64,000 nt of DNA from Luteimonas saliphila (lineage in GTDB: Bacteria; Pseudomonadota; Gammaproteobacteria; Xanthomonadales; Xanthomonadaceae), in NCBI RefSeq assembly GCF_016774335.1, contig NZ_JAETWA010000031.1, positions 1 through 64,000 on the forward strand. The letters run 5' to 3'. Made by a program: the position numbers and the translations under genes. The notes beneath the pieces were generated by a model. It was not told where the DNA came from and searched no databases. It saw nothing but the letters and a program-made list of their open reading frames with translations. This document shows, one piece after another, positions 3,291-40,576 of the stretch (the first letter of the stretch is position 1; each line of letters opens with the position of its first letter).

Positions 3291-4379
3291 CTAGACCAGG
3301 ACGGCGGCCGCCGGACGGCGGGGAGAGTACGGTAGCGTCGGCCCGTAGCCGAAACGCAGCACGAGATCCAGCCGCATTCCGGGCGCGCCGACGAGCGTGG
3401 CCAGTTCGGGGCGCAGCCGTGCCACCTCGATCGGCTGGTTGATGTAGGCGTGCTTGAGGCCGAGCGTGGTCGCCGTCAGCGTGAACCTCTGGCAGGCGCG
3501 GCCAACGGCGACCCAATGCGCCCTGTCTTCGCGCTCGGCGAAGAAGACCGCGACGCCCGCCGAGGAATCGATGTGCCTGGCGTACCTGTCGTTCTCGGCC
3601 TCGGCGGTGACGAAGGCATCGAAGGCGGGGCCGCCGAGGACATCCGGCAGCGCCGGATTGCCGGTGGCGCCCGAGTAGAGGCCGTCGCCCGTCGCCATGG
3701 CGCTGCGCGGACTGAAGCGCAACCAGGCCTCGAGTTCGGCCATGAAGGCGGGATCGCGCATCTGCGCATCGTTGCCGGCGACCACCAGGTCGCGCACCCG
3801 ATCGATCTGCGCGCGATCGGTCAGGATGAGCATGCGCACGCCCGGCATCCGGGCGGCGAGTTGCAACGCCTCGAGGTCGGTGGCGGGAACGGAGCGGCCG
3901 TCGTAGAGCGCGCGCGTGGACTGCCGCCGCGCAATGGCAGCGAGCAGCGGTTCATGGTGCGATCGTGCCGGGGACCAGGCGTAGTGGATGCTGCCGTCTG
4001 CTTGCGGCGCCAGCGTGCCGGGCCGTCCGCTCGCGGCACCGGCAATGGCCAGGTTCTCGGCCGCGCAGCCGAGGCTGACGTACAGGTGGTGGTCGTCCGG
4101 ATCGACGACGGGCGTGGCCCGCGACGGATCGGGCAGGATGTCGAGCGAATGCTCCCCGACCCGAAACCGCCACGGCTGGGTGTTGTGGCTGTTGGCGGCG
4201 AGCGTGGCATAGCGGACCAGATCCGCGATCCCCGCCTGCGCCGGCAGCGGTGCCCGCAACTGTTCGGTGTAGGCCTCGTAGCCGCCCCTGGTGCCGACCT
4301 GCGAACGCCAGCCAAGGATGCCCGCGCCCGCCAACACGGCGACGCCGCCCACTCCAGCCACTACGTGTCGACGTTTCAT
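3291..4379 (-). CDS. Acg-type nitroreductase-family protein with N-terminal signal anchor
   Basis: A 362-residue protein of the Acg family, which are FMN-binding nitroreductase-fold proteins. The ANSHNTQPWRF motif (residues 62-72) is the diagnostic flavin-contacting segment. The N-terminus (MKRRHVVAGVGG then a hydrophobic stretch) resembles a twin-arginine or anchor signal, so it may act outside the cytoplasm. Related proteins often have a collapsed or missing second half of the flavin site, so redox activity is not assured. It is the first gene of a two-gene unit with the alpha/beta hydrolase. Confidence 0.85.
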   Translation of the reverse strand: MKRRHVVAGVGGVAVLAGAGILGWRSQVGTRGGYEAYTEQLRAPLPAQAGIADLVRYATLAANSHNTQPWRFRVGEHSLDILPDPSRATPVVDPDDHHLYVSLGCAAENLAIAGAASGRPGTLAPQADGSIHYAWSPARSHHEPLLAAIARRQSTRALYDGRSVPATDLEALQLAARMPGVRMLILTDRAQIDRVRDLVVAGNDAQMRDPAFMAELEAWLRFSPRSAMATGDGLYSGATGNPALPDVLGGPAFDAFVTAEAENDRYARHIDSSAGVAVFFAEREDRAHWVAVGRACQRFTLTATTLGLKHAYINQPIEVARLRPELATLVGAPGMRLDLVLRFGYGPTLPYSPRRPAAAVLV

Positions 4380-4446
4380 CGTGCCTCCTGCGGCCGACTC
4401 TACGCGCCTGAAGCGACATGTCGTTGACTTCGCTCAATGCCAGTGA

Positions 4447-4481
4447 CCCCCTGGTAACGGTGGTCGGCGAGAACCAGGGGG
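4447..4481. other. Inverted repeat in the divergent intergenic region
   Basis: ccccctggt (4447-4455) pairs perfectly with accaggggg (4473-4481) around a 17-base loop. It lies between the divergent nitroreductase-like gene and the sugar dehydrogenase. It could be an operator or an RNA hairpin in the leader of the minus-strand unit; nothing in the sequence decides. Confidence 0.35.
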
Positions 4482-4673
4482 CCACGAGGATGTTGCAGCG
4501 CAACGACATGGGACGTGTCGCACTGCGAAAGTCCTGCCGTTCAATGGTGCCGGCGTCGCATCAGCCGTGCGCTCCAGGGAATCACATCCCCATAACGTGA
4601 CCGACGCTACTGGAGTCAAGTGCCCGCATGCGTATCGTAGGGCCACCTCCCCCACACGCCACAGGAAGCCCGG

Positions 4674-5999
4674 ATGCGCCTGTCCTTTGCCGCCTTCGCC
4701 TGTTCCGCACTGCTGCTCACCGCCTGCGACGACGTCTTCGTCGAACCCCCCACCGAGAACGACAAGACGGAGAACGCCGAATCGGCGGCCTCCGCGCCCC
4801 GCCTGGCCGTGTCGCATCGCCCGCTCGCAAACCCCGCCGAGGCGACCGTCGCGCCAGCGACGACAACGCCCCCGCGCATCCCTGTCCGTGCACCGGCGAG
4901 TGCGGTCGCGGCCGAACGCGGTACCGGCGGCCGTGGGCCGCGCCGCCAGGTCATCGAACCCGATCCGCCGTTCCGAAGCACACCGGTCGTTACGCTCAAC
5001 GAGCCCTGGGCGATGGCCTTCCTGCCCGACGGCCGCCTGCTGGTCACCGAGAAAGGTGGCGCGCTGCGACTGGTAAACCTGGCCACCGGCCAGGTCGGCA
5101 CGATCAGCGGCGTGCCCACGGTGGCAGTCGGCGGCCAGGGCGGCCTCGGCGACGTGATCCTGCATCCGCAGTACGCCAGCAACCGCCGCATCTACCTGAG
5201 CTACATCGAGCAGAGCGGCGCGATCTACGGCGCGGTCGTGGTCCGCGCGCGGCTGAACCTGGATGCCGGCAACGGCGGCAACCTCACCGAGATCACCCGC
5301 ATCTGGGAGCAGGCGCCGAAAGTCAGCGGCCAGGGCCACTTCAGCCACCGTCTCGCGTTCGATTCGAGCCGCAAACTGTGGATCACCTCCGGCGACCGGC
5401 AGAAGTTCGAGCCCGCCCAGGACATGGGCGTCAACCTCGGCAAGATCATCCGCCTCAACGACGACGGCAGCGTGCCCAGCGACAATCCCTTCTTCGCCCA
5501 GGGCGGCATCGCCGCGCAGGTGTGGACGCTGGGGCATCGCAACCCGCTCGGCATCGCCTTCGACGCGGAGGGTCGGCTGTGGTCGCACGAGATGGGGCCG
5601 GCCGGCGGCGACGAGCTCAACCTGATCCTACGCGGGCGCAACTACGGCTGGCCGATCGTTTCCAACGGCAACCACTACGACGGCACGCCGATCCCGAACC
5701 ACAGCACCCGTCCCGAGTTCGAGGCGCCGAAGGAATGGTGGACGCCGGTGATCGCCCCGTCCGGGATGATCATCTACTCGGGCAACCTGTTCCGCACCTT
5801 CCGCGGCGATGCCTTCATCGGTGGCCTGGCCTCGCAGGCGCTGGTGCGGGTGCGCTTCAATGGCACGCAGGCGACCGAGTACCGGCGCTATTCCATGGGC
5901 AAGCGCATCCGCGAGGTGGAACAGGGGCCGGATGGCGCGATCTGGCTGCTGGAAGATGGTGCCGGCGGACGACTGCTCAGGCTGACGCCGCCGGGCTGA
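4674..5999 (+). CDS. PQQ-dependent sugar dehydrogenase, lipoprotein
   Basis: A 441-residue member of the glucose/sorbosone dehydrogenase (YliI/Asd-like) beta-propeller family, which oxidises aldose sugars with pyrroloquinoline quinone in the periplasm. A lipobox LLTAC puts the lipidated Cys at residue 18. A low-complexity Ala/Pro/Arg linker follows (to about residue 95), then the propeller. Family motifs are visible: EPWAMAFLPDGRLLVTEK, GQGHFSHRLAFDS, LGHRNPLGIAFD, EMGPAGGDELN and NYGWP. The start ATG begins the signal peptide. A second enzyme of this family lies at 27705-29201. Confidence 0.93.
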   Translation: MRLSFAAFACSALLLTACDDVFVEPPTENDKTENAESAASAPRLAVSHRPLANPAEATVAPATTTPPRIPVRAPASAVAAERGTGGRGPRRQVIEPDPPFRSTPVVTLNEPWAMAFLPDGRLLVTEKGGALRLVNLATGQVGTISGVPTVAVGGQGGLGDVILHPQYASNRRIYLSYIEQSGAIYGAVVVRARLNLDAGNGGNLTEITRIWEQAPKVSGQGHFSHRLAFDSSRKLWITSGDRQKFEPAQDMGVNLGKIIRLNDDGSVPSDNPFFAQGGIAAQVWTLGHRNPLGIAFDAEGRLWSHEMGPAGGDELNLILRGRNYGWPIVSNGNHYDGTPIPNHSTRPEFEAPKEWWTPVIAPSGMIIYSGNLFRTFRGDAFIGGLASQALVRVRFNGTQATEYRRYSMGKRIREVEQGPDGAIWLLEDGAGGRLLRLTPPG

Positions 6000-27704: not shown

Positions 27705-29201
27705 TTATTGCCGACGCTCCTCCTGCGCCGTGAGCCGGAGGATCTGGCCGGGGTTGTCGGTGACCAGGTAGATCGCCCCGTCCGGCCCGACCACGGGTTC
27801 GTAGGGACGCCCCTGGGTGGTCACCAGGATTTCCTCGTGCTGGACGCGATCGCCGTCGATGGTGAGCAGGCGCAACTGGCGCGGCGAGAGCGCGGTGACC
27901 AGGGCCTTGCCCTGCCACAGCGGGAACTGGTTGCCGGCGTAGAACGCCAGACCCGAGACGCCGATCGAGGGCCGCCAGTACCACGCCGGCTGCTCCACGC
28001 CATCGGCACGCTGGTGCGGCGTCAGCACGGTGCCGTCGTAGTTGATGCCATGCGTGACCACCGGCCAGCCGTAGTCTCCGCCCCGGCGGACGATGTTCAG
28101 CTCATCGCCGCCGCGCGGACCGTGTTCGGTCGCCCACAGGCGCCCCGTGGCCGGTTCGAACGCCATGCCCTGCGGATTGCGGTGGCCGAGGCTGTAGACG
28201 GAGGCCAGCGCATCTTCGCGGCCCTGGAACGGGTTGCCGGGTGCCGGCGTTCCGTCCGGCAGCATGCGATGGATCTTGCCGCTCGGCCGTCCCGGTTCGC
28301 GCGAGAGCTCCTGCACGCCGCGGTCGCCGACCGAGAAATGCAGTCGCCCCTCGCGGTCGAACGCCATGCGTCCGCCGAAGTGCCAGAACGGCTCGCCGTA
28401 GTGGTCGTGGTCGGCTTCGTACACCACCTGCTGGTCGACCCAGTCGTTGCCGCGCAGGCGCCCGCGCACCACCCGGGTCATCGCCAGCGGGCCGCCCTCG
28501 GGACCGGTGGTGTCGAGCGGATGGCTGTAGCTGAGGTAGATCCAGCCGTTGCTGCCGTACTCCGGATCCACCGCGATGTCGAACAGCCCCGCCTGGTTCC
28601 AGCGGTGGCTGTGGACATAGACGGGCGGGATGCCGGCCACCGGCTGCGGCTGCAGCACGCCGTCGCGGACGATCCGGAGCCGGCCCGGCCGCTCGCTGAC
28701 CAGCACGGTGTCGGCGTCGAGGAAGGCCATCGCCCAGACCGTCTCGAGCCCGTCGGCGAACACCTCCACCCGCACCGCGTAGTCCAGCGTGTCGACCACG
28801 CCGGGGACGGCATCGAACTCGCGGGGCGGTTCCTCGGCGGCGGCCTGTTCATCTTCGTCCGGTTCCGGCTCCGCCTGTCCTTCGCGCGCGGGCAGGTACG
28901 CCGCGATCGCGGTGATCTCCTCCGCGGCCAGGATCCCGCCGAAGGCCGGCATCCCCTGCGAGGGCACGCCGATGTGGATGGCCCGCTCGATGTCGCCACG
29001 CGTGCCGCCATAGCGATAGGTCCGCGCGGAGAGCGCCGGCCCCAGGCCCGTCCCCTGCCGGTCGGCGCCGTGGCAGGACGCGCAATTGCGCTGGTAGAGC
29101 GCCGAGCCGTCAGGCGAGGCCGCGATCGACGTGCCGGCGGCGAGCGCCAGCAGCGGCGCAACCGCGACAAGGGCCAGGGTTCGGGTACGGGCAACAGGCA
29201 T
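27705..29201 (-). CDS. Cytochrome c fused to PQQ-dependent sugar dehydrogenase
   Basis: A 498-residue periplasmic enzyme. After the signal peptide (to about residue 28) comes a class I cytochrome c domain with heme motif CASCH (residues 40-44) and the axial Met in SQGMPAFGG. A Glu/Ala-rich linker (about residues 108-130) joins it to a glucose/sorbosone-dehydrogenase propeller: DGLETVWAMAFLDADTVLVSERPGRL, EPFWHFGGRMAFD, LGHRNPQGMAFE, EHGPRGGDELN, DYGWPVV. The fusion lets electrons pass from PQQ to heme in one chain. The GlcG-like gene follows directly. Confidence 0.93.
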   Translation of the reverse strand: MPVARTRTLALVAVAPLLALAAGTSIAASPDGSALYQRNCASCHGADRQGTGLGPALSARTYRYGGTRGDIERAIHIGVPSQGMPAFGGILAAEEITAIAAYLPAREGQAEPEPDEDEQAAAEEPPREFDAVPGVVDTLDYAVRVEVFADGLETVWAMAFLDADTVLVSERPGRLRIVRDGVLQPQPVAGIPPVYVHSHRWNQAGLFDIAVDPEYGSNGWIYLSYSHPLDTTGPEGGPLAMTRVVRGRLRGNDWVDQQVVYEADHDHYGEPFWHFGGRMAFDREGRLHFSVGDRGVQELSREPGRPSGKIHRMLPDGTPAPGNPFQGREDALASVYSLGHRNPQGMAFEPATGRLWATEHGPRGGDELNIVRRGGDYGWPVVTHGINYDGTVLTPHQRADGVEQPAWYWRPSIGVSGLAFYAGNQFPLWQGKALVTALSPRQLRLLTIDGDRVQHEEILVTTQGRPYEPVVGPDGAIYLVTDNPGQILRLTAQEERRQ

Positions 29202-29292
29202 GGCAGGTCCTCCTGGGCAGCGGCGAGCCGCCGCGACCCGGGCAGGAGAACCTGGATGCCCGGTCCTTCTGGATGGAGGAACCCTAGGGTTT

Positions 29293-29301
29293 TGCTATAG
29301 A
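29293..29301 (+). promoter_or_regulatory. Extended -10 promoter of the CadC-like regulator
   Basis: TG-c-TATAGA (29293-29301) is a good extended -10 element. No clear -35 is present, which is usual for this class. Transcription would start near 29308, which rules out GTG 29306 as the start codon and favours the downstream GTG behind the ggaggag site at 29330. Confidence 0.45.
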
Positions 29302-29347
29302 TTCGGTGCAGGCGCCCGTCGGGCGTCGCGGAGGAGCCCGGCATCGG

Positions 29348-31609
29348 GTGGTGGAACGGGTGAGCGAACAGACGGCCATCGGAAAGATCGAGGTATCGCC
29401 GGCGGAGCGTCCGGGCCGCGCCGGGGCCTTGAACTTCAGTGCCGGCGAAGCGCTGGTCCAGCCCACGCTCAACCGCATCTCGATCCGCGGCCGCGTCGCC
29501 CAGGTCGAACCCAAGGTCATGCAGGTGCTGGTGCTGATGGCGGAGCGGCCGGGGACCGTGATCTCGCGGGACACGTTCCTCGACACCGTCTGGGCCGGCA
29601 CCATCGCCGACGACTACCTGCTCAACCGCGCGGTCTCGGAGCTGCGCAAGATCTTCGACGACGATCCGCAGGCGCCGCGTTACATCGAGACGATCCGCAA
29701 GGGCGGCTACCGCCTGATCGCACCGATCGCACCGGCCAGGGTGGCTGCCGCTCTCGCGGCGCCCGCACCGGGCGCGTCGCCCGACGCAACCGAACCCGCC
29801 GGCCCGACACCGGCCGCGGCCGACCCCGCCGAACCGGAGGCAGCGCCGGAGGTCCGCCGACGCACGACGCCGATCGTCCTGGCGCTGGCAGGCGTCGCGG
29901 CGCTGTCGCTGGCGGCGTGGCTGCTGCTCCCTCGCGCGCCGTCCGGGTCCGCCACCGCGCCCGCCTTGGCGCACGACGTCCGGCCGCTCACCAGCTTCGT
30001 CGGTCGTGAACTCGAACCCGCGCTGTCGCCCGATGGCAGCCGGGTCGCCTTCATCTGGGATGGCGGCGGCGCCTTCGACGTCTACGTCAAGACGATCGGC
30101 AGCGAGGAGGTGCTCAACCTCACCGACAGCCCGGTCGACGAGCGCCATCCGCTGTGGACCGCGGACGGGCGCGCCCTGCTGTTCGCGCGCACCGACGACA
30201 CCGGCATTTCGCTCATGCGCGTGTCCGCGCTCGGTGGCGGCGTCACCCGGGTGCTGCGCGACGGAACGATGCGCGAGATCCGTGGCATGAGCCTGTCTCC
30301 GGACGGCACTCGTGTCGCCTACGCCGGGCGCCAGGGTGCAAGCGAGCCGTACCGCATCGTCGTGGCCACGCTCGAGGGCGGCGAACGCCGGATCCTGTCG
30401 ACGCCCGACGCGGGAACGCTGGGCGACACCGACCCGCGCTTCTCCCATGACGGCCGTACGATCGTGTTCGTCCGCGGCGTCAACGAGGTCGCCAAGGACG
30501 TCTATCGGGTCCGCGCCGATGGCGGCGAGGCGACCCGCCTGACCTTCGACAACCGCAAGATCAACGGCCTGGCATGGTCGCCCGATGGCGGCCGGATCCT
30601 GTTCACCTCGACCCGCTCCGGGACGTACGCGCTGTGGTCTGCGGATCCGGACAGCGGCGCGCTGGAGGCGGTGGGGCTGGGCAACGAAGACGTCCACCAA
30701 CCGGCGACCGCGCCGGGCGTCGACGCAATCGCCTTCGAACAGTGGATGCACCGCTCGCAGCTGCGCCGGATCGACCTGTCCGGGCAGGCCGACGCCGACG
30801 CCGGGCGCCTGCTCCATTCGACCCGCTGGGATTCGAACCCGGCCTGGTCGCCCGACGGTGAACGCATCGCCTTCATTTCCAACCGCAGCGGACCGCACGG
30901 GGTATGGGTCAGCCAGCGCGACGGCAGCGGCGCGGTGCAGATCGCCGCGTTCGAGGGGATGTTCGTCGACAATCCCGCGTGGTCGCCCGACGGTGCGCTG
31001 ATCGCCTTCGACGCCAGCCCCGAGGGCAGGACCGCGATCTTCACCGTCTCCCCGGAAGGCGGCACCCCGCAGCGGATCGTCGACGGTCCCGGCGACAACC
31101 GCAATCCGGCGTGGTCGCGCGACGGCGCCTGGCTCTATTTCGAGTCCAACCGCAGTGGCGAATGGCGCGTCCATGCGTTGCCTGCCAATGGTGGCGATGC
31201 GATCGCGGTGACCGCCGGGCCCGGTGCCCATCCACGCGAGTCGGCCGACGGCCGCCACCTGCTCTACAGCAAGCCCGACGTGCCCGGCCTCTGGTCGCTG
31301 CCGCGGACGGACTGGCGGACCCGGGCCGGACGCGCTGAGGAGACCCTCCTGTTCGCCGGGCTCGACCCCCGCGATGGCGGCAGCTGGGCGCCCGCGGACG
31401 CCGGCGTGTACTTCCTGCGTCGTCCGCCGGGGGACGTGCCGGTCCTCTCGCTGTTCGCCCACGCGGACGCGACCGCGACCGACCTGGTTGCGCTGTCCTC
31501 GGACTTCGAGGGAGGGGGCTTCGACCTGTCCCCGGACCAGTCCCGGCTCCTGTTCTCCGAGATGATCGCCCGGGAAAGCGACCTGCGCCTGGCCGTCCCC
31601 CGTCGATGA
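29348..31609 (+). CDS. CadC-like winged-helix regulator with periplasmic TolB-type beta-propeller
   Basis: About 753 residues, a one-component transmembrane regulator. The N-terminal OmpR/PhoB-type winged helix includes ISIRGRVAQVEPKVMQVLVLMAERPGTVISRDTFLDTVW and SELRKIFDDDPQAPRYIETIRKGGYRLIA. An Ala/Pro/Glu linker and one membrane helix (VLALAGVAALSLAAWLLL) follow. The rest is a beta-propeller of PD40/WD40-like TolB repeats, with SPDG, SHDG or SRDG recurring about every 40-50 residues. The propeller should sense a periplasmic ligand or partner. It is divergent from the cytochrome/PQQ dehydrogenase operon, its likely target. GTG 29348 fits a ggaggag ribosome site. Confidence 0.9.
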   Translation: MVERVSEQTAIGKIEVSPAERPGRAGALNFSAGEALVQPTLNRISIRGRVAQVEPKVMQVLVLMAERPGTVISRDTFLDTVWAGTIADDYLLNRAVSELRKIFDDDPQAPRYIETIRKGGYRLIAPIAPARVAAALAAPAPGASPDATEPAGPTPAAADPAEPEAAPEVRRRTTPIVLALAGVAALSLAAWLLLPRAPSGSATAPALAHDVRPLTSFVGRELEPALSPDGSRVAFIWDGGGAFDVYVKTIGSEEVLNLTDSPVDERHPLWTADGRALLFARTDDTGISLMRVSALGGGVTRVLRDGTMREIRGMSLSPDGTRVAYAGRQGASEPYRIVVATLEGGERRILSTPDAGTLGDTDPRFSHDGRTIVFVRGVNEVAKDVYRVRADGGEATRLTFDNRKINGLAWSPDGGRILFTSTRSGTYALWSADPDSGALEAVGLGNEDVHQPATAPGVDAIAFEQWMHRSQLRRIDLSGQADADAGRLLHSTRWDSNPAWSPDGERIAFISNRSGPHGVWVSQRDGSGAVQIAAFEGMFVDNPAWSPDGALIAFDASPEGRTAIFTVSPEGGTPQRIVDGPGDNRNPAWSRDGAWLYFESNRSGEWRVHALPANGGDAIAVTAGPGAHPRESADGRHLLYSKPDVPGLWSLPRTDWRTRAGRAEETLLFAGLDPRDGGSWAPADAGVYFLRRPPGDVPVLSLFAHADATATDLVALSSDFEGGGFDLSPDQSRLLFSEMIARESDLRLAVPRR

Positions 31610-31846
31610 CCGGCGCCGGGGTCGACATCGATGTCCTTCGCCGGCGCGGTCGGTCGGGACTGCATCCGCGTGCCGCGGCAGTCCCCTGCCCCCATTCCTG
31701 CGGTCCGGGCGCGGGCGGCGGCGATCGGCCCAGACCCGGCCGCACTCCGGGGCCGACGAAGTGCGGCCCCTGCGACATCCGCATCCGTCCCGTGCATCCG
31801 GAGGAGCGTCACCGCTGACCGGAGGTCAAGGGCCCGGCGTCCGGGA

Positions 31847-32239
31847 TCAGCGCAGCGGCACGATGCCGTGCGACGCGCGTTCGCACACGACCAGTTCGTC
31901 CGGGCCGGTCGACGCTCCCGTTGCGCGCACCCGCATTCCGGCGGCGAGCGCCTCGACGGCCACCGGCGGCGCTTCGCACAGGTTCCAGCGCGCCGGCAGG
32001 TGGACCGAGACCGAGCCACGTCCGGGCACGTCGATCATCACGATCGCGTTGCCGTCGTAGGTCCACGGCCGGGTATCGATCGACACGATCATGCCCTCGA
32101 CCGGGACCGGGTCGCCGGACGCGGACCCGGCATCGGGCGCCGCATCGGGCGCCGCATCGGGCGCGGTGCCGCAGCCCGCGGCCGACAGGGCCAGGCAGAG
32201 GGCTGCCTGAAAGCGTGCATGACAGGGGTATCGCGGCAT
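31847..32239 (-). CDS. Small exported protein with Ala-Pro-Asp repeats, possible lipoprotein
   Basis: A 130-residue protein with a signal peptide ending in LSAAGC, an acceptable lipobox with Cys near residue 23. A short APDAAPDAAPDA tract follows, then a domain of about 85 residues (GMIVSIDTRPWTYDGNAIVMIDVPGRGSVSVHLPARWNLCEA) that looks like a small OB-like beta-barrel. The function is unknown. The repeat tract is coded by three 12-bp tandem units, so its length may vary between strains. The 237 bases between it and the converging regulator gene show nothing else. Confidence 0.78.
   Translation of the reverse strand: MPRYPCHARFQAALCLALSAAGCGTAPDAAPDAAPDAGSASGDPVPVEGMIVSIDTRPWTYDGNAIVMIDVPGRGSVSVHLPARWNLCEAPPVAVEALAAGMRVRATGASTGPDELVVCERASHGIVPLR
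32130..32165. repeat. 12-bp tandem repeat, three copies, inside a small exported protein gene
   Basis: gcatcgggcgcc occurs at 32130-32141 and 32142-32153, and with its last base changed at 32154-32165. It encodes the Ala-Pro-Asp-Ala repeats on the minus strand. The unit is a multiple of three, so copy changes keep the frame. Confidence 0.8.
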
Positions 32240-32420
32240 GGGGACTCCTCGGGCTGGAAGGCCGATCGCGTCACTGTCGCACACGCGGGCGAGGCGATCC
32301 GTGTCGCACGTTCGCTCGCGGTTCGCAGACGAGGGGCGCGGGTTCCGCAAGCCTGAGACGCACGCGCCGGCCGTCGTCGGAGGTCCGCTCGGGAAACCGC
32401 GCGAAGCGAACCCGCCCGCT

Positions 32421-34952
32421 TCAATCGTTCCCGGCCAGCGCATCCGCCAGCGACGGCTCCACGCCCGGTGCGCCGGGGTCGCCGCGCAGCTCGCCCAGCG
32501 GCGGGATGACCAGTGTGGTGTATTCCTCGTAGTGCGCGGTGGGCAGGTCACGCAGGGCGAGGCGCTCCGCGCGCGCGGTTTCGATCGGCAGCCGCGCGGC
32601 TTCGTAAAGGATCACCTCGTGCCCGGGCGGATACCAGCGCAGCAGCTTGTCGACCAGCGCCTGCAGGCCCTCGCGCTCGGCGTGGAAACGGGTGCAGGAC
32701 AGGTCGCCCGACAGCGCCACCTGCCACAGCAGCACCAGCCCGGCGGTGTCGGGCTGGCGATCGTAGTGGAGGAAGTGGGTCGCCTCCATCGACTGCACGC
32801 CGCGACGGCCCGGATCGATGCCGAGGTCGGCGTACAGGCAGGCTTCGGCGGAGATCCCCGGCTCCATGCGCGCCGGGATCCCTTCCGCGCGCGCCTTGCG
32901 CACCACAGCGTGGGGGACGTCGGCGAACACGCCCGGATGGCCGTAGAACACCGCGCACACGCGCTTGCCGTCGCGCACCTGGTCCATGATCGCCGCATCG
33001 ATCTCGCGATAGGTCTGGCGCCGGTCCTTGCCCTCGGCGTAGTGCGCGCCGAGGTTGATCGCGTCGGGGCGGAAGTTCTGGATCATCGCCAGCGCGAACG
33101 GATCGGTCAGGCAGAACACCACCTGCGCCTCGCGGATCTCCGACAGGCAGCGCTCGTTGACGTGGCGCCCGAATTCGATGCCGCTGCCGACCACCACCAG
33201 GCCCGCACCCGCCGCCGATTCGGCCGCCTCCTCGTTCGCGCACACCACCCGGTCCCGGCCTTCGTACTTGGCGCGGTACAGCGCCTGGTCGGCCTCATGG
33301 ATCAGCTGTTCGAGCGTGGCGGCATGGCCGTTGGCCTGGCAGACGCCCGAGCTGATGCTGAAATGCACGGTCTGCCCGAACACGCTGATCGGCTCGATCC
33401 GGTCGCGCAGGCGTTGCAGCAGGCCTCGCGCCTGCGCGGCCTCCGCCTCGAGCAGGATGGTGAATTCGTCGCCGCCGCTGCGCCCGGCGATGCCCTGCTC
33501 GCCGACGATCTCGCGGATCCAGGTCCCCAGCGAACGCAGCGCCTCGTCTCCCGCGGCGTGGCCGTGGCGATCGTTGACCTCCTTGAACCGGTCGATGTCG
33601 GCGACGATCGCGGTAAACGGCCGCCCGTTCCCGCGCGCGCGGGCGAACGCTACTTCGCCGAGCCTGCGCACGTGCTGGTAGTTGTGCAGGCGGGTCAGGC
33701 TGTCGTGCTCGGACTGCCAGCGATAGCGGCGCCGTTCCCGGAATGAGCGGCGCAGCAGCACGGTGAGCAGCAATGCCGTGGCCAGCAGGGCGACCACGCC
33801 CGCGGCGAGCAGCCACTGCCGCCGCTTGGTGGCAGTGACCTGCAGGGCAGCCAGCTCCCGCTCGGCTTCGAGCAATGCGATCTGTTGTTCCTTCATCCGC
33901 GTGTCGAATTCGACCTGCAGGTAGGTCAGGCGCCGCGCACGGGCATCGGCCTCGGCGGCCGCCGAGGCCGACATGGCCTGCTTGAGATGCGCCAGGGCCG
34001 TGACGAGGTCGCCGCGCCGTTCGGCCAGTCTGGCCAGCAGGTGCTCGGTCTCGGCGATGGCGAGGTTGGATTCGTGTTCGCGGTAGTAGCGCAGGGTGTC
34101 GAACAGCAAGGCGCTGGCGTGGTCGAGATCCCGGTTCGACACGATCAGGCTTTCGGCAATGACCAGGCGCGTGCTCCAGGCGCCGGCCGCGTAGCCCGCG
34201 GCCTCGAACTCCGAGAGCGCCTGCCGGGCCCAGCCCCAGGCCTCTTCATGCCGGCCCTGCCTCATCGCCATCTTGGCGACGCCGTACCTGCCGACCGCTG
34301 TGAAAACCGGGTCGCCGGCACGGGTGCAGGCTTCGATCTGCCGGCGCCGCCAGCCTTCCGCGGCACTGAAGTTGCCGGCGTGGTCCTCGGCCAGGGCCAT
34401 TTCCGACAGGGCCACGCACAGGCCCCGGGCATCGTCCCTCGCCTCGACCGCCTCGACGGCGCGCAGCGCCATGTCGCGCGCCTTCTCCGTTTCCCCGACG
34501 AGGGTATGCAGGTAGCTGGCGGTTCCGAGCAGGGTGTGCGATTGCTCGGGCGCCTCGGGCAGGTACGACAGGCCCTCGTTAAGCCAGGTGAAGGCCCGCG
34601 ACCAGTCCTCGATATTGGCGGCCACGTTGATGGCCGTACCGTAGATGCGTATGCGCAGCGCTGCGGGCATCTCCTCCGCCAGCAGCGCTGCCAGGCCCTC
34701 CAGCGCCTCCGTCAGCCGCCCGGCGAGCGCCAGGTTGCGCAGGCGGACATACTCGATGCGCTGGCGCTGCTCCGTGGTGAGCGCACCGGACCGCGATGCC
34801 AGCGCTTCGATTTTCGCGTTCGATTCCCGCCAGTGCGCGGTGACCGCAAGCGCCTCGATCTCGCTGACCTGCGCCTCCAGCGCGTCCGCGGCCAACGACG
34901 GCATGCCGACCAATGCCAGCAGCAGGACTGCGAGCGGAATCAGCCGATACAT
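32421..34952 (-). CDS. TPR sensor - GGDEF diguanylate cyclase - borosin-type peptide N-methyltransferase fusion
   Basis: An 843-residue protein. Parts in order: signal peptide (1-21); a helical TPR-like periplasmic region (about 24-340); a coiled-coil stretch (340-378); a membrane helix (380-401); a GGDEF domain (about 413-572) with intact SGGDEF at 492-497 but no RxxD inhibitory site; and a 261-residue tetrapyrrole-methylase-fold domain (583-843). The last matches split-borosin alpha-N-methyltransferases such as SonM from memory: LVVVGSGIEF, HYAEGKDRRQTY (Tyr638, Arg645, Tyr648), FYGHPGVFADV (Tyr670), EPGISAEACLYADLGIDPG and QSMEATHFL. It lies 31 bp downstream of a precursor-like gene. The fused cyclase suggests N-methylation tied to c-di-GMP signalling. 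Confidence 0.88.
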   Translation of the reverse strand: MYRLIPLAVLLLALVGMPSLAADALEAQVSEIEALAVTAHWRESNAKIEALASRSGALTTEQRQRIEYVRLRNLALAGRLTEALEGLAALLAEEMPAALRIRIYGTAINVAANIEDWSRAFTWLNEGLSYLPEAPEQSHTLLGTASYLHTLVGETEKARDMALRAVEAVEARDDARGLCVALSEMALAEDHAGNFSAAEGWRRRQIEACTRAGDPVFTAVGRYGVAKMAMRQGRHEEAWGWARQALSEFEAAGYAAGAWSTRLVIAESLIVSNRDLDHASALLFDTLRYYREHESNLAIAETEHLLARLAERRGDLVTALAHLKQAMSASAAAEADARARRLTYLQVEFDTRMKEQQIALLEAERELAALQVTATKRRQWLLAAGVVALLATALLLTVLLRRSFRERRRYRWQSEHDSLTRLHNYQHVRRLGEVAFARARGNGRPFTAIVADIDRFKEVNDRHGHAAGDEALRSLGTWIREIVGEQGIAGRSGGDEFTILLEAEAAQARGLLQRLRDRIEPISVFGQTVHFSISSGVCQANGHAATLEQLIHEADQALYRAKYEGRDRVVCANEEAAESAAGAGLVVVGSGIEFGRHVNERCLSEIREAQVVFCLTDPFALAMIQNFRPDAINLGAHYAEGKDRRQTYREIDAAIMDQVRDGKRVCAVFYGHPGVFADVPHAVVRKARAEGIPARMEPGISAEACLYADLGIDPGRRGVQSMEATHFLHYDRQPDTAGLVLLWQVALSGDLSCTRFHAEREGLQALVDKLLRWYPPGHEVILYEAARLPIETARAERLALRDLPTAHYEEYTTLVIPPLGELRGDPGAPGVEPSLADALAGND
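32424..33206 (-). other. Borosin-type alpha-N-methyltransferase domain of the fusion protein
   Basis: This is the segment coding residues 583-843. It has the length of a free-standing split-borosin methyltransferase. There are no cobalamin or siroheme genes nearby, so a role in tetrapyrrole methylation, which a domain search alone might suggest, is unlikely. Confidence 0.82.
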
Positions 34953-34983
34953 GCGCTTGCGACGGACGTTGCCGCGAAGGCGA

Positions 34984-35199
34984 TTACTCGTAGCACTTGA
35001 TGCTGTGGTTGGTGGCGAACTGTCCGTCCGTCAGCCCCGTGAGCTTCTTGATCGCAGCGTAGTCCTTCTCCGCCATCGCCCTGCGCTCGGCGTCGGCCAG
35101 GCCGGCGCGCTGCATCACCGCCTCCGGGTCCTTGTCGTACTCCGCGGCCAGCGCCGCATCGCTGCCAAGCTTGCGCATCAGATCAAGCAGTTTCGACAT
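34984..35199 (-). CDS. Split-borosin precursor peptide candidate
   Basis: A 71-residue protein directly upstream of the methyltransferase fusion. Residues 1-54 form a helical domain with the pattern of the borosin binding domain of SonA-type precursors: LLDLMRKLGSDAALAAEYDKDPEAVMQRAGLADAE, then KDYAAIKKLTG. The conserved marks are the DPEAVM turn and the later acidic-aromatic step before the tail. The remaining 15-17 residues (TDGQFATNHSIKCYE) would be the core whose backbone amides are methylated. The core has one Cys near the end. ATG 35199 follows a gggggaaag ribosome site. An unrelated small LigA-like helical protein is the alternative reading. Confidence 0.83.
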   Translation of the reverse strand: MSKLLDLMRKLGSDAALAAEYDKDPEAVMQRAGLADAERRAMAEKDYAAIKKLTGLTDGQFATNHSIKCYE

Positions 35200-35214
35200 G
35201 TTCTTTCCCCCTGA

Positions 35215-36268
35215 ATCGACCAGGCATCGTCACCTCGCGAACGCGACCCGGCGCGATGCAGTGACCCCATGACAACCACCCCGACGTACACGCCGCCTCC
35301 GGCGCCGCGGAACAGGCCGACATTAGCACAGGACCATGCCCGTACGGCGGTGGCAGCCCGACACGGGCGCATCATCGGCGCAGCGGGAAACAAGGTGCCT
35401 GTGCTGCGTGCTTCGGCGGTCCGGGATGGACCGGTACCGATCGAGCGCCCCCGCGCGGGCCCACTTCCGGACCGCGGGCGATGCCCGTTGATCCGGAATC
35501 CGCCGGACCAGGCACCTGTCGTCGAGAGCGCAGCGCGCGATCCCGCGTCGGGCATCGCGTACACCCTCGCGTCCACTCGACCGCGCGGACCGCGATGCCG
35601 CAGGAGCGCCGGCTGCGGTCGCGCTCGCCAGCGGGCCATCGGGCCATCGCGATCGGAGCGGCGACGATCTGCGCCCCGGTCCCCTGGGACCACGCCAGCA
35701 AGACATGGATGTTCTGCGCGCGACTCACGGCCCGGTGAGCGCGGATCGCGTGCGCGGCTTGCCGCGCGCATCCGGGCGGCCGCCCGGATGCGCTGCCGGG
35801 TGGCCGGACCGCGCAGCGGCCCTGGCCAAGCGACGGGCGATTCCCGGGCGCCGGGGCGCGGCGTCGATCCGGAGTCCTGACCGGGACGTCTGCGTACGGG
35901 CCAGGCCGCGAGCGCGTGCGCACGACCGGCGCCCGCCATATCGGAAACGGCAGTGGTGCATACCCGACCGCATATGTCGCCCTCGTGCGCGGCAACGATC
36001 GCCCGCCCGAAGCCGATGCCCACCTGCCGCCGCCAACGCCCTTGGGATCGGGCGTTTCGACGCACCGGGGTCCTGGTACCGGCGCTGCACGCGGACCGAC
36101 CGTTGCGTCCCGGCCCATCCGCGTACTACCCCGATGCCGCGCGGGATTCGACTCGGCAAGGGCTTTTCGACAGACTCCGATCCCACCCGCTGCCGGGCAC
36201 GCCTGCGCGCATCGCGCGCACGAAATGCCCGACGCGAACACAGCCAGCCCAAGGAACGCCAAACGCCC
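35215..36268. other. 1.05-kb region without a convincing gene
   Basis: Open frames exist on both strands here, but their translations are Arg/Ala/Pro/Gly-rich with no domain, signal peptide or hydrophobic pattern. I see no repeat, tRNA or clear terminator. It separates the divergent borosin-like unit and the GH51 gene and is long for this genome, so it may hold eroded sequence or regulatory RNA. Confidence 0.5.
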
Positions 36269-37804
36269 ATGACCGTCCTGAATTCCCTGCGCGCCGTCGC
36301 CTGCTGCGCCCTGCTCTCCGCCTCCCCGCACCTGTTCGCCGCCACCGTCACCGGCACCGTCCAGGCCGACAAACCCGGTCCGGTGATCGCGCCGGAACTC
36401 TACGGCCAGTTCATGGAGCAGCTCGGCACCGGCGTCGACGGCGGCGTCTGGGTCGGCCCGGATTCGGACATCCCCAATACCCGCGGCTTCCGCAACGACG
36501 TGCTGGCGGCGCTGAAGGAACTGCAGGTCCCGGTGCTGCGCTGGCCGGGCGGCTGCTACGCCGACATCTACGACTGGCGCACCGGCATCGGCCCGCGCGA
36601 CCGGCGCCCGGTCACCCTCAACCGCTGGTGGGGCAACAAGGAAGAACACAACGCCGTCGGCACCCACGAGTTCTTCGAATTCGCGGAACTGCTCGGCGCC
36701 AGGACCTTCCTCAACGTCAACGTCGGCACCGGCACCCCGCGCGAGGCCGCGCAGTGGGTGGAATACATCACCTCGCCCACCAATTCGGCGCTCGCGCAGG
36801 AGCGCCGCCGCAACGGCCGCGAGGAACCGTGGAAGATCGACTTCCTCGGCATCGGCAACGAACCCAACGGCTGCGGCGGCCGCATGCGCGCGGAGACCTT
36901 CGCCGACCTGTTCCGCCAGTACTCGGGCTTCATCGCCCCGCATGGCGGCACGACGATGATCGCCTCCGGCCCCGACGCGACCAGCGCGGAATGGACCCGC
37001 ACCACGATGGAACTCGCCGGCGAGCACCTCGACGCATTCTCGATGCACTACTACACCCTGCCCACCGGCGACTGGAGCGCGAAGGGCCCGGCGACCGGCT
37101 TCGACCAGGCGCAATGGCGGGCCACGTTCGAGCGCACCTACATGATCGAGCCGATGATCCGGGAACAGTCCGCGATCATGGACGAGTTCGATCCGGAGGC
37201 GGAGAAGGCGCTGGTGATAGGCGAATGGGGCACCTGGTACGACCCGACGCCCGGCTCGCCAGGCGGCTGGTTGCAGCAGCAGAACAGCATCCGCGACGGC
37301 CTGGTGGCGGCGGTCAACCTCAATATCTTCCATCGCAACGCCCGGCGTCTGCGCGCCGCGGGCATCGCGCAGATGGTCAACGTGCTGCAGGCGATGATCC
37401 TCACCGACGGCGCGAAGATGCTGCGTACGCCCACCTACCATGCGTTCCGGATGTACCGGCCGTTCCAGGGCGCCACCTCGCTGCCGCTGCAACTGGACTC
37501 GCCCGCCTACGGCAGCCTCGAGGCCGTGGACGGCACCGCCGCGCGCGGCCGCGACGGCAAGCTGCATGTCGCGCTGGTGAACATCGATCCGGACGCGGCG
37601 ATGAACGTCTCGCTCGCGCTCCACGGCACGCAGGCGACCCGCGCGACCGGGCAAGTGCTCACCGCGGACGCGATCGACGCGCACAACACCTTCGACGATC
37701 CGGACAACGTCCACCCGGTGGCGTTCGAAGGCGCGCGCGTCTCGGACGGGAGATTGACCGCCACCCTGCCCGCCAAGTCGCTGATCGTGTTGACCCTGGA
37801 GTAA
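36269..37804 (+). CDS. Secreted GH51 alpha-L-arabinofuranosidase
   Basis: A 511-residue glycoside hydrolase that removes arabinose side chains from arabinoxylan and related hemicelluloses. The signal peptide ends near FAA (residue 25). The (beta/alpha)8 catalytic domain has the acid/base Glu198 in GIGNEPNGCGG and the nucleophile Glu319 in VIGEWGTWYD. RWPGGCYADIYDWRTGIGP is the family's arabinose-site segment. A C-terminal beta-domain follows (from about residue 400). It is full length. The ATG at 36269 is chosen for the signal peptide. It belongs functionally with the GH3 enzyme at 48252. Confidence 0.95.
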   Translation: MTVLNSLRAVACCALLSASPHLFAATVTGTVQADKPGPVIAPELYGQFMEQLGTGVDGGVWVGPDSDIPNTRGFRNDVLAALKELQVPVLRWPGGCYADIYDWRTGIGPRDRRPVTLNRWWGNKEEHNAVGTHEFFEFAELLGARTFLNVNVGTGTPREAAQWVEYITSPTNSALAQERRRNGREEPWKIDFLGIGNEPNGCGGRMRAETFADLFRQYSGFIAPHGGTTMIASGPDATSAEWTRTTMELAGEHLDAFSMHYYTLPTGDWSAKGPATGFDQAQWRATFERTYMIEPMIREQSAIMDEFDPEAEKALVIGEWGTWYDPTPGSPGGWLQQQNSIRDGLVAAVNLNIFHRNARRLRAAGIAQMVNVLQAMILTDGAKMLRTPTYHAFRMYRPFQGATSLPLQLDSPAYGSLEAVDGTAARGRDGKLHVALVNIDPDAAMNVSLALHGTQATRATGQVLTADAIDAHNTFDDPDNVHPVAFEGARVSDGRLTATLPAKSLIVLTLE

Positions 37805-37980
37805 TTGCGAGGTCCGCATGGACCCGGCCCGCGGAGACCACAGGGCGGGCGTCGGCGGGCCAATGCGATGGCCCTCCGTGCCTCGCGGTCCCCGCGCATG
37901 GCATCCGCTTTTCTCCCCCTGCCGCGCCCCCATCCCCGACGGCACGCCGCTTGCGACGGGCGTACGCGTACCCGGCCCGA

Positions 37981-39024
37981 TTACGCGGGCTGGAACACCG
38001 GTTCGAGCAGCCGGAACGTGCCGGCATCGGCGTCCAGTTCCACCCGCCCCCCGACCGGCACGATGAACTGCTGGCGGATGTGGCCGATCATCGCGCCGCG
38101 ATAGGCCGGAACGCCCAGCGGCCTGATATGGTCGTCGAGGATCTGCGACAGGGTCAACGAGCCGTAGCCGTCGCCGGGGTCGCAGTCGGTGCACTCGCCG
38201 AAGATGAAGCCGGCGATCCGGTCGAGCGCGCCCATCAGCTTGAGCGTGGTCAGCATGCGGTCGACCCGATAGGGCGCCTCGGACACATCCTCCAGGAACA
38301 GGATCCTGCCGCCGAAGTCGGGCACGTACGGCGAGCCGGCGATGGCCGTGAGCACCGTCAGGTTGCCGCCCACCAGTTCACCGCGCGCCTTGCCGCCGGT
38401 GATGGTGACCGTACGGTTCTTGCGCGGCACCAGTTCGTCGCCGGCCTCGACCAGGTTTTCGTAGCGCATCAGTTCGCGCTCGAAGAACACGCGCCGGAAC
38501 TGGTCGACGTTGAACCGGTTCCAGCTGCCGGCGCCGATGGGGCCGTGGAAGGTCACCAGGCCGGTCCGTGCATGGATGGCGCTGTGCAGCGCGGTGACGT
38601 CGGAATAGCCGAGCAGCGCCTTGGGGTTGGCGCGGATCGCGTCGTAATCCAGCAGCGGCAGCAGGCGCGCCGCGCCGGAGCCGCCGCGCGCGCAGACGAT
38701 GGCCTTGACGTCCCGGTCGGCGAAGGCGGCGTTGATGTCGCCGGCACGCTGCGCATCGGTGCCGGCGAGGTGACCGCGGCGCGCCGCGTAGTGCGCGCCG
38801 GTCTTCACCCTGAAGCCCAGCGCCTCCATTGCCTCGCGCGCGAGCTGCAGATCGAAGCTGTCGTCGACTGCGGACGACGGGCTGACCAGGCATACGGTAT
38901 CGCCGGGCGCAAGCGGCACCGGCAGCAGGCGTGCGTGCGGCGCCGCGCTCGCGCTGCGCACGGCGGCAAGTGGAAGCAGGGCGGCCGCCAACGCAGCGTT
39001 GCCGAGGAAGTCCCGCCTGTGCAT
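37981..39024 (-). CDS. S66-family LD-carboxypeptidase, Tat-type signal
   Basis: A 347-residue muramoyltetrapeptide (LD-) carboxypeptidase-like protein that would trim D-Ala from peptidoglycan peptides or cleave related peptides. The N-terminus MHRRDFLGNAALAAALLP is a twin-arginine-like signal, whereas E. coli LdcA is cytosolic. Family motifs are present: VCLVSPSSAVDD, CARGGSGAARLLPLLDYD, LLGYSDVTALH (Ser nucleophile region), GPIGAG, GELVGGNLTVL and the terminal GAMIGHIRQQFIVPVGG with the active-site His. ATG 39024 starts the signal. Confidence 0.92.
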   Translation of the reverse strand: MHRRDFLGNAALAAALLPLAAVRSASAAPHARLLPVPLAPGDTVCLVSPSSAVDDSFDLQLAREAMEALGFRVKTGAHYAARRGHLAGTDAQRAGDINAAFADRDVKAIVCARGGSGAARLLPLLDYDAIRANPKALLGYSDVTALHSAIHARTGLVTFHGPIGAGSWNRFNVDQFRRVFFERELMRYENLVEAGDELVPRKNRTVTITGGKARGELVGGNLTVLTAIAGSPYVPDFGGRILFLEDVSEAPYRVDRMLTTLKLMGALDRIAGFIFGECTDCDPGDGYGSLTLSQILDDHIRPLGVPAYRGAMIGHIRQQFIVPVGGRVELDADAGTFRLLEPVFQPA

Positions 39025-39164
39025 GTGTGGCTGCCTGTCGGACCCGGTTCCGGACCAGATTAGCACCGGTCACGCGCAACAATCCGCCGGGCGCAACGCG
39101 AGGCGACGGATGCGTTCCGCACCGCAGCCGATCGCCGATCCGTCGCGGACGCGGGAACGGTTCC

Positions 39165-40223
39165 TCACCCCTCCGCCCGGCCGGGAACCAGAGGCCCCGG
39201 CACGGGCGCGCCGTCGTCCGGCCCGGATCGATCCTCGATCACGGTGCGGTTGCGTCCGCTGCGCTTGGCGCGGTACATGGCGGCGTCGGCGCGGGCCAGC
39301 CAGTCGCCGGCCGATTCGCCGGGACGGAAGGGCGCGGCGCCGAGCGAAACGGTGATACTGCGTCCGTGGCACCGCACCTCGCGCTCCACCGAAACCCGCA
39401 GCTTTTCCGCGATGTTCCACAACGCGTCCGGGCTGGCGCCGGGGCACAGCAGACCGAATTCCTCGCCGCCGAGCCGGAAGAAGCGATCGTCCTTGCGCGT
39501 GGAACTGCGCACCAGTTCGGACACCTGGACGAGCACGTCGTCTCCGGCTTCGTGGCCGAAGTCGTCGTTGACCAGCTTGAAACGGTCGAGGTCGAAGACT
39601 ACGAAGCCCAGCGGCGTGCCGCTGCGCATGCTCGATGCCATCGCGATCTCCAGTTCCGTCTCCAGGCCGCGACGATTGCCCGCGCCGGTGAGCGGGTCGT
39701 GCAGCGCGACCGCCTCGAGCTGCGACCGCTGCAGCTCCGCACGCGACGAGAATACGAACGAGAACAGGCTGACGACCGCGGCGGTCACCCCGAACATGAC
39801 CTTCTGCAGGGAGCTGACCAGGGCGGCATCACTCGCGATGATCGCCGCGATCGCGAGCGTGGAGACCACGAGAGCCGGCCAGCGGCCGACGAGGAGAAAG
39901 TTCGCGACCAGGACCGGATAGACCCAGAACAGACCGGACAGCCCGGCAAGGTGCGCCACCGCGACGCAGCCGATCGAGTACGTGACCGACGCGATGAGCG
40001 CCGCACCCGGCGTTCGCCCTGTGCGCCACGCATAGGCCGAACTGGCGACGATGCCGACTACGATCACCATGTCGACCAGCGCGACCAGCGGTTGCCCGCT
40101 CAAGAAGCGATAGACCGCGAATGGCGTGATGCCCAGGGCGGTGATCGCGCCGAACATCACGATGATCGCGAGATGGAAATCGCCTTTGAGCCTGGTCTTC
40201 CACATCTCGCGGTGTGTTCGCAT
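39165..40223 (-). CDS. Membrane diguanylate cyclase (GGEEF)
   Basis: About 352 residues. Five or six N-terminal membrane helices (a compact 165-residue membrane domain) are followed by a GGDEF-family domain with active-site loop RLGGEEFGLLC and an RKDD inhibitory site just before it. DPLTGAGNRRGLE and FVVFDLDRFKLVNDDFGHEAGD complete the cyclase signature. The start is uncertain: ATG 40223 or ATG 40205. Three 8-bp tandem repeats lie 6 bases upstream of the first and could affect expression. It ends in a Pro/Gly-rich tail. Confidence 0.9.
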   Translation of the reverse strand: MRTHREMWKTRLKGDFHLAIIVMFGAITALGITPFAVYRFLSGQPLVALVDMVIVVGIVASSAYAWRTGRTPGAALIASVTYSIGCVAVAHLAGLSGLFWVYPVLVANFLLVGRWPALVVSTLAIAAIIASDAALVSSLQKVMFGVTAAVVSLFSFVFSSRAELQRSQLEAVALHDPLTGAGNRRGLETELEIAMASSMRSGTPLGFVVFDLDRFKLVNDDFGHEAGDDVLVQVSELVRSSTRKDDRFFRLGGEEFGLLCPGASPDALWNIAEKLRVSVEREVRCHGRSITVSLGAAPFRPGESAGDWLARADAAMYRAKRSGRNRTVIEDRSGPDDGAPVPGPLVPGRAEG

Positions 40224-40228
40224 TCGGG

Positions 40229-40252
40229 GCGTGGCTGCGTGGCTGCGTGGGT
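40229..40252. repeat. 8-bp tandem repeat, three copies, at the 5' end of a GGDEF gene
   Basis: gcgtggct occurs at 40229-40236 and 40237-40244, and as gcgtgggt at 40245-40252, followed by a partial fourth copy. It sits immediately upstream (minus strand) of the probable start codon at 40223. The unit is not a multiple of three. Confidence 0.7.
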
Positions 40253-40576
40253 GCGTCGCATACCCGTATCGCAACGGGCACGACCACAGGCAAGGAAGCA
40301 TGCCCGGGACGCAATCGCCGCCACACTAGCGGACCGGCGGCCGCGCCGGCGTGAACGGAGCCCATCCGCGCCAGGCTCGACGCTTCCGCGGTGTGCGCCT
40401 GGCGCGTCGTTCTGCAGCGCACCAGAACGCCGGAGAATGAAAGCCTTGCAGCCGCGAAGTCCGGACCGGCTGCCGCGCCTCCCCGACACCACTGGCGTTG
40501 GCACGAGGCTCGGCCGGGACAGCGCGCGTCGAGACCGGTTGTCGCCGGCGTCGTCAGTTGGCCGCCGGCGTCGGGG

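What the first reader, a model, noticed from the sequence alone, without database searches (positions are those of the whole stretch)
32421..35199. Split-borosin locus whose N-methyltransferase is fused to a membrane GGDEF cyclase
Seen: a 71-residue protein (34984-35199) lies 31 bp upstream of one uninterrupted 843-residue frame. That frame reads signal peptide, helical sensor, membrane helix, intact GGDEF domain (SGGDEF 492-497), then 261 residues of tetrapyrrole-methylase fold. Known: split borosins, such as the SonM/SonA pair of Shewanella oneidensis, use such a methyltransferase to N-methylate backbone amides in the tail of a separate precursor with a helical borosin binding domain. Motifs recalled from SonM recur here (YGHPGVFA, EPGISAEAC, ADLGIDPG), as do the Tyr/Arg/Tyr/Tyr active-site candidates (638, 645, 648, 670). 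Inferred: a ribosomal peptide modifier is controlled by, or controls, c-di-GMP and a periplasmic signal through the sensor. I know of no described borosin of this architecture.
Basis: partly seen in the sequence, partly recalled or inferred. Interest (0 to 1): 0.96.

Follow-up and report, generated by a model that had tools for sequence, protein, structure and literature searches.

The report
Peptide methyltransferase fused to signalling cyclase
One bacterial membrane protein joins a predicted outward-facing sensor, a domain that likely makes the messenger c-di-GMP, and a domain predicted to methylate the backbone of the small protein encoded beside it; in many relatives the same three parts sit together as separate genes, so these peptides of unknown purpose likely belong to a signalling system.

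Summary
A 71-residue precursor lies 31 bp upstream of one 843-residue frame: signal peptide, TPR-like sensor, membrane helix, intact GGDEF domain, SonM-type borosin N-methyltransferase. The methyltransferase matches SonM (phmmer 2e-69; model 1.2 Å over 244 columns) with all four tested catalytic residues; the precursor model matches SonA at about 1 Å over five helices. The fusion is no artefact: the 120 listed of 333 long relatives carry both domains, and the fused proteins form one clade.

The main result is that a cyclase accompanies most members of this borosin clade, fused or not. In sister lineages the same parts are adjacent genes (precursor–cyclase–methyltransferase); elsewhere the order is methyltransferase–precursor–cyclase, including a locus whose methyltransferase equals the SonM stretch compared. 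In an order-wide sample 74 of 83 usable loci have a fused or co-directional cyclase within 1.2 kb; chance predicts about 0.6. Distant borosin methyltransferases mostly lack it.

I read it as a peptide/c-di-GMP signalling module; the direction of signalling is inferred. The fusion may be in print: a 2024 figure legend lists a GGDEF domain among borosin architectures. Methylation, c-di-GMP synthesis and sensing are untested.

The parts
34984..35199 (-). Precursor gene, 71 aa, SonA-like
   Evidence: frame; SonA by phmmer 7.5e-7; five-helix model on SonA
35038..35193 (-). Precursor residues 3-54: predicted borosin-binding five-helix domain
34987..35025 (-). Precursor residues 59-71: disordered tail, predicted core to be N-methylated
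   Evidence: pLDDT under 50; near-invariant TNHx(I/V)(K/R)(A/C)Y(D/E); core role inferred from SonA
32421..34952 (-). Fused sensor/cyclase/methyltransferase gene, 843 aa
34887..34952 (-). Residues 1-22: predicted signal peptide
   Evidence: hydropathy
34017..34883 (-). Residues 24-312: TPR-like helical sensor, predicted periplasmic
   Evidence: model; weak Pfam TPR
33708..34007 (-). Residues 316-415: long helix with the membrane segment (about 380-401, 33750-33815)
33240..33710 (-). Residues 415-571: GGDEF domain; motif GGDEF at 493-497 (33462-33476)
33204..33239 (-). Residues 572-583: variable linker
   Evidence: 24% mean pairwise identity among fused proteins; low pLDDT at 574-581
32463..33203 (-). 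Residues 584-830: SonM-type N-methyltransferase; Y638, R644, Y648, Y670 = SonM Y58, R67, Y71, Y93

Best explanation
The locus is likely a two-gene peptide-signalling module: a small precursor with a SonA-like predicted docking domain, and one membrane protein that joins a predicted periplasmic TPR-like sensor, a GGDEF domain with its catalytic residues intact, and a SonM-type methyltransferase predicted to N-methylate the precursor's tail. Inferred working: the precursor docks on the methyltransferase at the inner membrane and its last 10-13 residues are N-methylated; the resulting peptide reaches the periplasmic sensor; the sensor switches the GGDEF dimer through the long membrane helix, so that peptide status sets local c-di-GMP. 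Shown: sequence, domains, catalytic residues, homology to SonM and SonA, one-clade fusion, and the conserved neighbourhood of the three parts. Predicted or inferred: membrane topology, N-methylation of this precursor, c-di-GMP synthesis, export of the peptide, and sensing of it.
For: Methyltransferase: SonM E 2.1e-69, OphMA about 1e-36, precorrin enzymes 9.5e-4 or weaker; SonM Y58/R67/Y71/Y93 present, and invariant in 102 tree rows. Precursor: SonA-like in sequence and predicted fold. Cyclase: GG[DE]EF in 39 of 39 fused, 33 of 33 upstream and 88 of 88 downstream partners in which the motif was found, 3 further frames without it; eleven catalytic-region positions conserved in 80 of 80 aligned. 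Coupling: order sample 74 of 83 usable loci fused or within 1.2 kb, 7 more at 1.8-2.1 kb, 2 none, against 0.75% expected. Separate genes in the same order in 14 sister-lineage loci and methyltransferase-precursor-cyclase in the genus of SonM. Fusion is one clade, and gene order changes several times while the linkage stays. The membrane helix lies a median 108 residues before the motif in all three groups. The sensor has no paralogue in its genome at E 1e-3. The precursor tail is near-invariant in close homologues. A separate borosin clade lies near a cyclase with another sensor, 7TMR-DISM.
Against: No experiment. No protease or exporter family recurs beside the fused loci, so release and export are unexplained; the tail carries His, Lys and Glu, which does not favour passive passage. 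In the close homologues sampled the tail is no better conserved than the leader (mean entropy 0.80 against 0.72 bits). Sensors of the downstream type are only distantly like the window's (median 29 bits), and with a sensor profile they score little above the mixed set of other cyclases (median 197 against 142; that set holds some linked ones), so one common ligand is unproven. Distant borosin methyltransferases mostly lack a linked cyclase: none in 7 of 9 class-sample and 3 of 12 phylum-sample loci, so the cyclase is not needed for borosin chemistry. The linked loci are related, not independent events. pTM 0.53: domain placement is unsure.
Confidence: 0.5

Rival explanations
1. Inside-out coupling: binding of the precursor, its methylation state or SAM at the cytoplasmic methyltransferase dimer sets the GGDEF dimer directly, and the tail never leaves the cell; the sensor answers to something else.
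For: In the fused protein both enzymes lie on the predicted cytoplasmic side, joined by a short linker. PMC8429565 reports that SonM changes conformation strongly with cofactor and core peptide (passages). No exporter or protease recurs at fused loci.
Against: The linker is variable and of low confidence (24% identity), a poor lever. The unfused systems need a separate contact. The membrane-helix-to-GGDEF spacing is near-constant, as expected if the sensor drives the cyclase.
Confidence: 0.2
2. Production control: the sensor and c-di-GMP time or tune the making of a borosin that acts elsewhere (on competitors, metals or the cell surface); the peptide is not the signal.
For: The sensor could read an outside cue. 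Tailoring-type genes recur in some cyclase-linked loci: GNAT acetyltransferases, an aspartyl protease, an amine oxidase, as for a natural product.
Against: A near-invariant tail in the fused clade is unusual for a weapon, though the sample is of close homologues. No c-di-GMP riboswitch was found in window 28000-40000 or in 11 related loci.
Confidence: 0.2
3. Passenger: gene neighbourhood and fusion carry no functional link between cyclase and borosin.
For: Cyclases are common, 487 GGDEF matches in 21 genomes; some borosin loci lack one.
Against: 74 of 83 against about 0.75% by chance; linkage kept through several changes of gene order; catalytic residues kept.
Confidence: 0.05

Closest known systems
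SonM/SonA, type IV split borosin of Shewanella oneidensis (PMC8429565; PDB 7LTC and others)
   Same: Methyltransferase domain (48% identity in the structural alignment), four tested catalytic residues, SonA-like precursor. A locus whose methyltransferase is 100% identical over the 243 residues of SonM compared has a TPR/GGDEF open frame directly after the stop of its SonA-like gene.
   Different: Here the cyclase is fused to the N-terminus of the methyltransferase, the gene order differs and the tail sequence differs. The main text of PMC8429565 holds no word beginning with 'cyclase', 'operon' or 'regulat' (passages seen, not the whole text).
GGDEF-bearing borosin architecture named in the legend of Figure 1, PMC11395268 (borosin types 0-XI)
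   Same: A borosin scheme that contains a GGDEF domain.
   Different: Only the legend was seen; which type bears it, whether it is fused, and whether a sensor or membrane helix is present are unknown to me. 'ggdef' occurs only in that legend, and the Discussion, read whole, gives it no role.
OphMA, dbOphMA and MroMA fused fungal borosins
   Same: Methyltransferase fold and sequence (E 1e-38 to 1e-33).
   Different: Precursor fused to the methyltransferase; no sensor or cyclase.
TPR-GGDEF membrane diguanylate cyclases (class named from recall)
   Same: Signal peptide, TPR-like sensor, one membrane helix, GGDEF domain.
   Different: Carries a peptide methyltransferase at its C-terminus with a precursor gene beside it; no RxxD site (0 of 39 fused scored).

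Membership tests
Split borosin (type IV-like) | TP-methylase-fold methyltransferase closest to SonM/OphMA | tested here: met
Split borosin (type IV-like) | SonM residues Y58, R67, Y71 and cofactor Y93 | tested here: met
   Y638, R644, Y648, Y670
Split borosin (type IV-like) | Separate adjacent precursor with a five-helix borosin-binding domain and a short C-terminal tail | tested here: met
   (sequence and predicted fold)
Split borosin (type IV-like) | Backbone N-methylation of the core | not testable with these tools
   needs mass spectrometry
Split borosin (type IV-like) | Methyltransferase-precursor complex | not tested
   no complex was predicted
Active diguanylate cyclase | GG(D/E)EF motif and conserved catalytic positions | tested here: met
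   (roles of the positions recalled)
Active diguanylate cyclase | RxxD product-inhibition site (common, not required) | tested here: not met
   absent in 39 of 39 fused proteins scored, window included
Active diguanylate cyclase | c-di-GMP synthesis | not testable with these tools
   needs an enzyme assay
Cobalamin/siroheme methylase | Best match to that family | tested here: not met
   best precorrin enzyme E 9.5e-4 against 2.1e-69 for SonM
LigA subunit of LigAB dioxygenase (PF07746) | Score at or above Pfam's cut-off | tested here: not met
   21.9 bits against 25.3; the SonA-like frame of L198 also falls short, 25.1
TPR repeat protein | Score at or above Pfam's cut-off | tested here: inconclusive
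   TPR_MalT 26.9 of 45 and TPR_12 21.9 of 30.1 bits; helical hairpins in the model

The most novel reading that the evidence does not exclude
SonM-clade borosins are c-di-GMP signalling peptides: a widespread family of systems in which a ribosomal, backbone-N-methylated peptide is made and read by its own dedicated membrane cyclase, with the fused Luteimonas-type protein as the one-chain version and the SonM/SonA locus as its best-studied member.
Probability: 0.35. Interest if true: 0.93.

Novelty: new variant of a known kind. Interest (0 to 1): 0.8.

Why it matters
I know of no reported biological role for bacterial split borosins (recalled), and PMC11395268 says that few mature borosins have been identified (passage). 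A cyclase kept beside, or fused to, the methyltransferase across several families suggests a testable role: peptide-linked control of c-di-GMP, the messenger of biofilm and motility. It also gives a laboratory handle, since the SonM locus appears to carry the cyclase gene directly after the precursor.

Tried and rejected
Rejected: cobalamin/siroheme methylase; sequencing artefact; chance neighbourhood. Sought and not found: RNA families in window 28000-40000 at E 0.1, and in 11 related loci only tmRNA, twice, at gathering scores; sigma-70-like promoters 0 and terminator-like sites 1 in window 32150-35800, no more than in shuffles. Conserved neighbours of fused loci: the recurring clusters were precursor-bearing frames, shadow frames and what looks like local synteny, such as an LD-carboxypeptidase-like frame in 8 loci. 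A second precursor in the window's genome: only a 13.8-bit match.

Full report
WHAT IS THERE. The frames are as described. The 843-residue protein carries GGDEF at 415-568 and a TP_methylase domain at 585-786; TPR matches are weak and below cut-off. AlphaFold2 on a 100-row alignment gives mean pLDDT 89.5: helical hairpins to residue 312, a long helix at 316-415, GGDEF, a low-confidence linker at 574-581 and the methyltransferase; pTM is 0.53, so the relative placement of domains is not to be trusted. Hydropathy marks a signal peptide and one membrane segment at about 380-401. That would put the sensor in the periplasm and both enzymes in the cytoplasm (prediction).

THE METHYLTRANSFERASE IS OF THE BOROSIN KIND. 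By phmmer the domain matches SonM at 2.1e-69 and OphMA at about 1e-36, precorrin enzymes at 9.5e-4 or weaker. Foldseek puts SonM chains first (best E 2.1e-23; 1.2-1.3 A over 244 columns for the top ranks). SonM Y58, R67, Y71 and Y93, whose mutation lowers the turnover in PMC8429565 (passages), map to Y638, R644, Y648 and Y670 and do not vary in 102 tree rows.

THE FUSION IS REAL, COMMON AND OF ONE ORIGIN. A search in which candidates had to be of similar total length found 333 proteins; the 120 listed all carry both Pfam domains; the names given include Luteimonas, Pseudoxanthomonas and Rubrivivax. In the tree the 29 fused rows form one clade (SH-aLRT 95) beside loci where cyclase and methyltransferase are neighbouring genes.

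THE SPLIT FORM. In 14 loci examined, from Wenzhouxiangella, Sedimenticola, Thiolapillus and other relatives, a precursor is followed by a separate TPR/membrane/GGEEF frame and then by a separate methyltransferase frame, often overlapping. The fused protein looks like this operon with its last two genes joined.

THE CYCLASE ACCOMPANIES MOST OF THE CLADE. In more distant loci (Lysobacter, Dyella, Rheinheimera, Colwellia, Shewanella and others) the order is methyltransferase, small precursor-like frame, GGEEF cyclase (eight cyclases, from both split orders, scanned, seven with at least a weak TPR match and one, L053, with none). Counts, cyclase fused or co-directional within 1.2 kb: genome-contig loci 78 of 81 (36 fused, 16 upstream, 26 downstream); order sample 74 of 87 (3, 18, 53), with 7 more at 1.8-2.1 kb, 2 with none and 4 cut by contig ends; phylum sample 8 of 12, with 1 farther away and 3 none; class sample 2 of 9, with 7 none. 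The misses of the class and phylum samples are 29-42% identical to the window domain, and the farther one 45%. Linked methyltransferases of similar distance exist too. GGDEF density in 21 genomes (487 in about 77.6 Mb) predicts 0.75% of loci by chance. On the tree the arrangement changes several times while the linkage stays.

THE FOUNDING MEMBER. The SonM stretch was searched in 97 genomes of one genus; 83 have a match, and one is 100% identical over 243 residues, in a 5.1-Mb genome of two contigs. In that locus the open frame that follows the stop of the SonA-like gene is 596 residues long, with GGDEF (1.3e-38) and weak TPR matches; its start codon was not determined. Of 20 loci fetched from this genus, 19 have a same-strand cyclase frame within 1.2 kb downstream and in one the cyclase reads in two overlapping frames; the precursor profile hits in 19 of 20. 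The held paper on SonM/SonA shows no word beginning with 'cyclase', 'operon' or 'regulat' in its main text.

THE CYCLASE LOOKS ACTIVE. GG[DE]EF is present in 39 of 39 fused, 33 of 33 upstream and 88 of 88 downstream partners in which the motif was found; three more frames lack it, two of them cut by contig ends and one (L139) of full length. The RxxD inhibitory site is absent in all 39 fused, and present in 3 of 33 and 49 of 88 of the others. Eleven catalytic-region positions are the same, apart from D/E in the motif, in 80 of 80 aligned cyclases. The membrane helix lies a median 108 residues before the motif in all three groups. The sensor has no paralogue in its own genome at E 1e-3. Among the 56 fused rows mean pairwise identity is 79% for the methyltransferase, 67% for GGDEF, 54% for the sensor and 24% for the linker. 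Against one sensor family: the downstream-type sensors score a median of 29 bits against the window's sensor, and with a sensor profile 197 bits against 142 for the mixed set of other cyclases in these loci, which itself holds linked ones.

A SECOND BOROSIN CLADE. Six loci of one family carry a cyclase about 1.8 kb upstream of the methyltransferase. In the four whose intervening frames were read, an amine-oxidase-like frame lies between (the L192 frame confirmed by Pfam), and a weak precursor-profile hit lies upstream of the methyltransferase. The three of these cyclases scanned have a 7TMR-DISM sensor instead of TPR. This looks like a separate pairing of a borosin with an outward-facing cyclase, though it is one lineage.

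HOW IT LIKELY WORKS. Shown: the parts, their integrity and their linkage. Inferred: the precursor docks on the methyltransferase at the membrane; its tail is N-methylated; the peptide is read by the sensor, which sets c-di-GMP. N-methylation would explain stability without a dedicated partner, but the charged tail argues against free membrane passage and no exporter was found. The inside-out and production-control rivals are not excluded.

WHAT IS KNOWN. Searches of the held library: 'borosin' with 'GGDEF' 1 paper, with 'diguanylate cyclase' 0, with 'c-di-GMP' 0; the locus tags SO1478/SO1479/SO1480 only the SonM paper. The one paper, PMC11395268, holds 'GGDEF' only in its Figure 1 legend. So a GGDEF-bearing borosin was drawn before; the conserved cyclase neighbourhood, the split form and the cyclase at the SonM locus I did not find in these searches. 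Most subscription papers, among them the two that define types V-X, are not held, so priority is open.

Noticed in passing
L054, L055, L057, L063-L067, L069-L071, L073, L074, L077, L078: A GNAT-like family recurs in 15 loci with cyclase-linked borosin methyltransferases; three members were confirmed by Pfam (L055, L063, L074). Its place in each locus was not checked.
   Followed up: partly
L057, L066, L070, L074, L078: A further family recurs in these 5 loci; its L078 member (3988-5379) matches eukaryotic-type aspartyl protease PF00026. It could be a maturation protease.
   Followed up: partly
L184, L189, L192-L195: Distant borosin clade with an amine-oxidase-like frame (4 of 6 loci read, 1 confirmed by Pfam) and a 7TMR-DISM/GGDEF cyclase (3 of 6 scanned).
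   Followed up: partly
L186:3829-5463: One frame with two TP-methylase stretches and no linked cyclase.
   Followed up: no
L150:1903-5433: A borosin-like methyltransferase near the start of a 1177-residue open frame with no other Pfam match at 1e-4.
   Followed up: no
L012: Two tandem copies of precursor plus fused cyclase-methyltransferase.
   Followed up: no
L014, L052: Rubrivivax gelatinosus IM 151 holds two fused copies that group inside the Lysobacteraceae-rich fused clade, which suggests horizontal transfer.
   Followed up: no
window 39165-40301 (-): Another GGDEF protein, 378 residues, about 4 kb upstream of the precursor.
   Followed up: no
L199: The cyclase beside a SonM-like pair reads in two overlapping frames, so it may be decayed or misassembled.
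   Followed up: no
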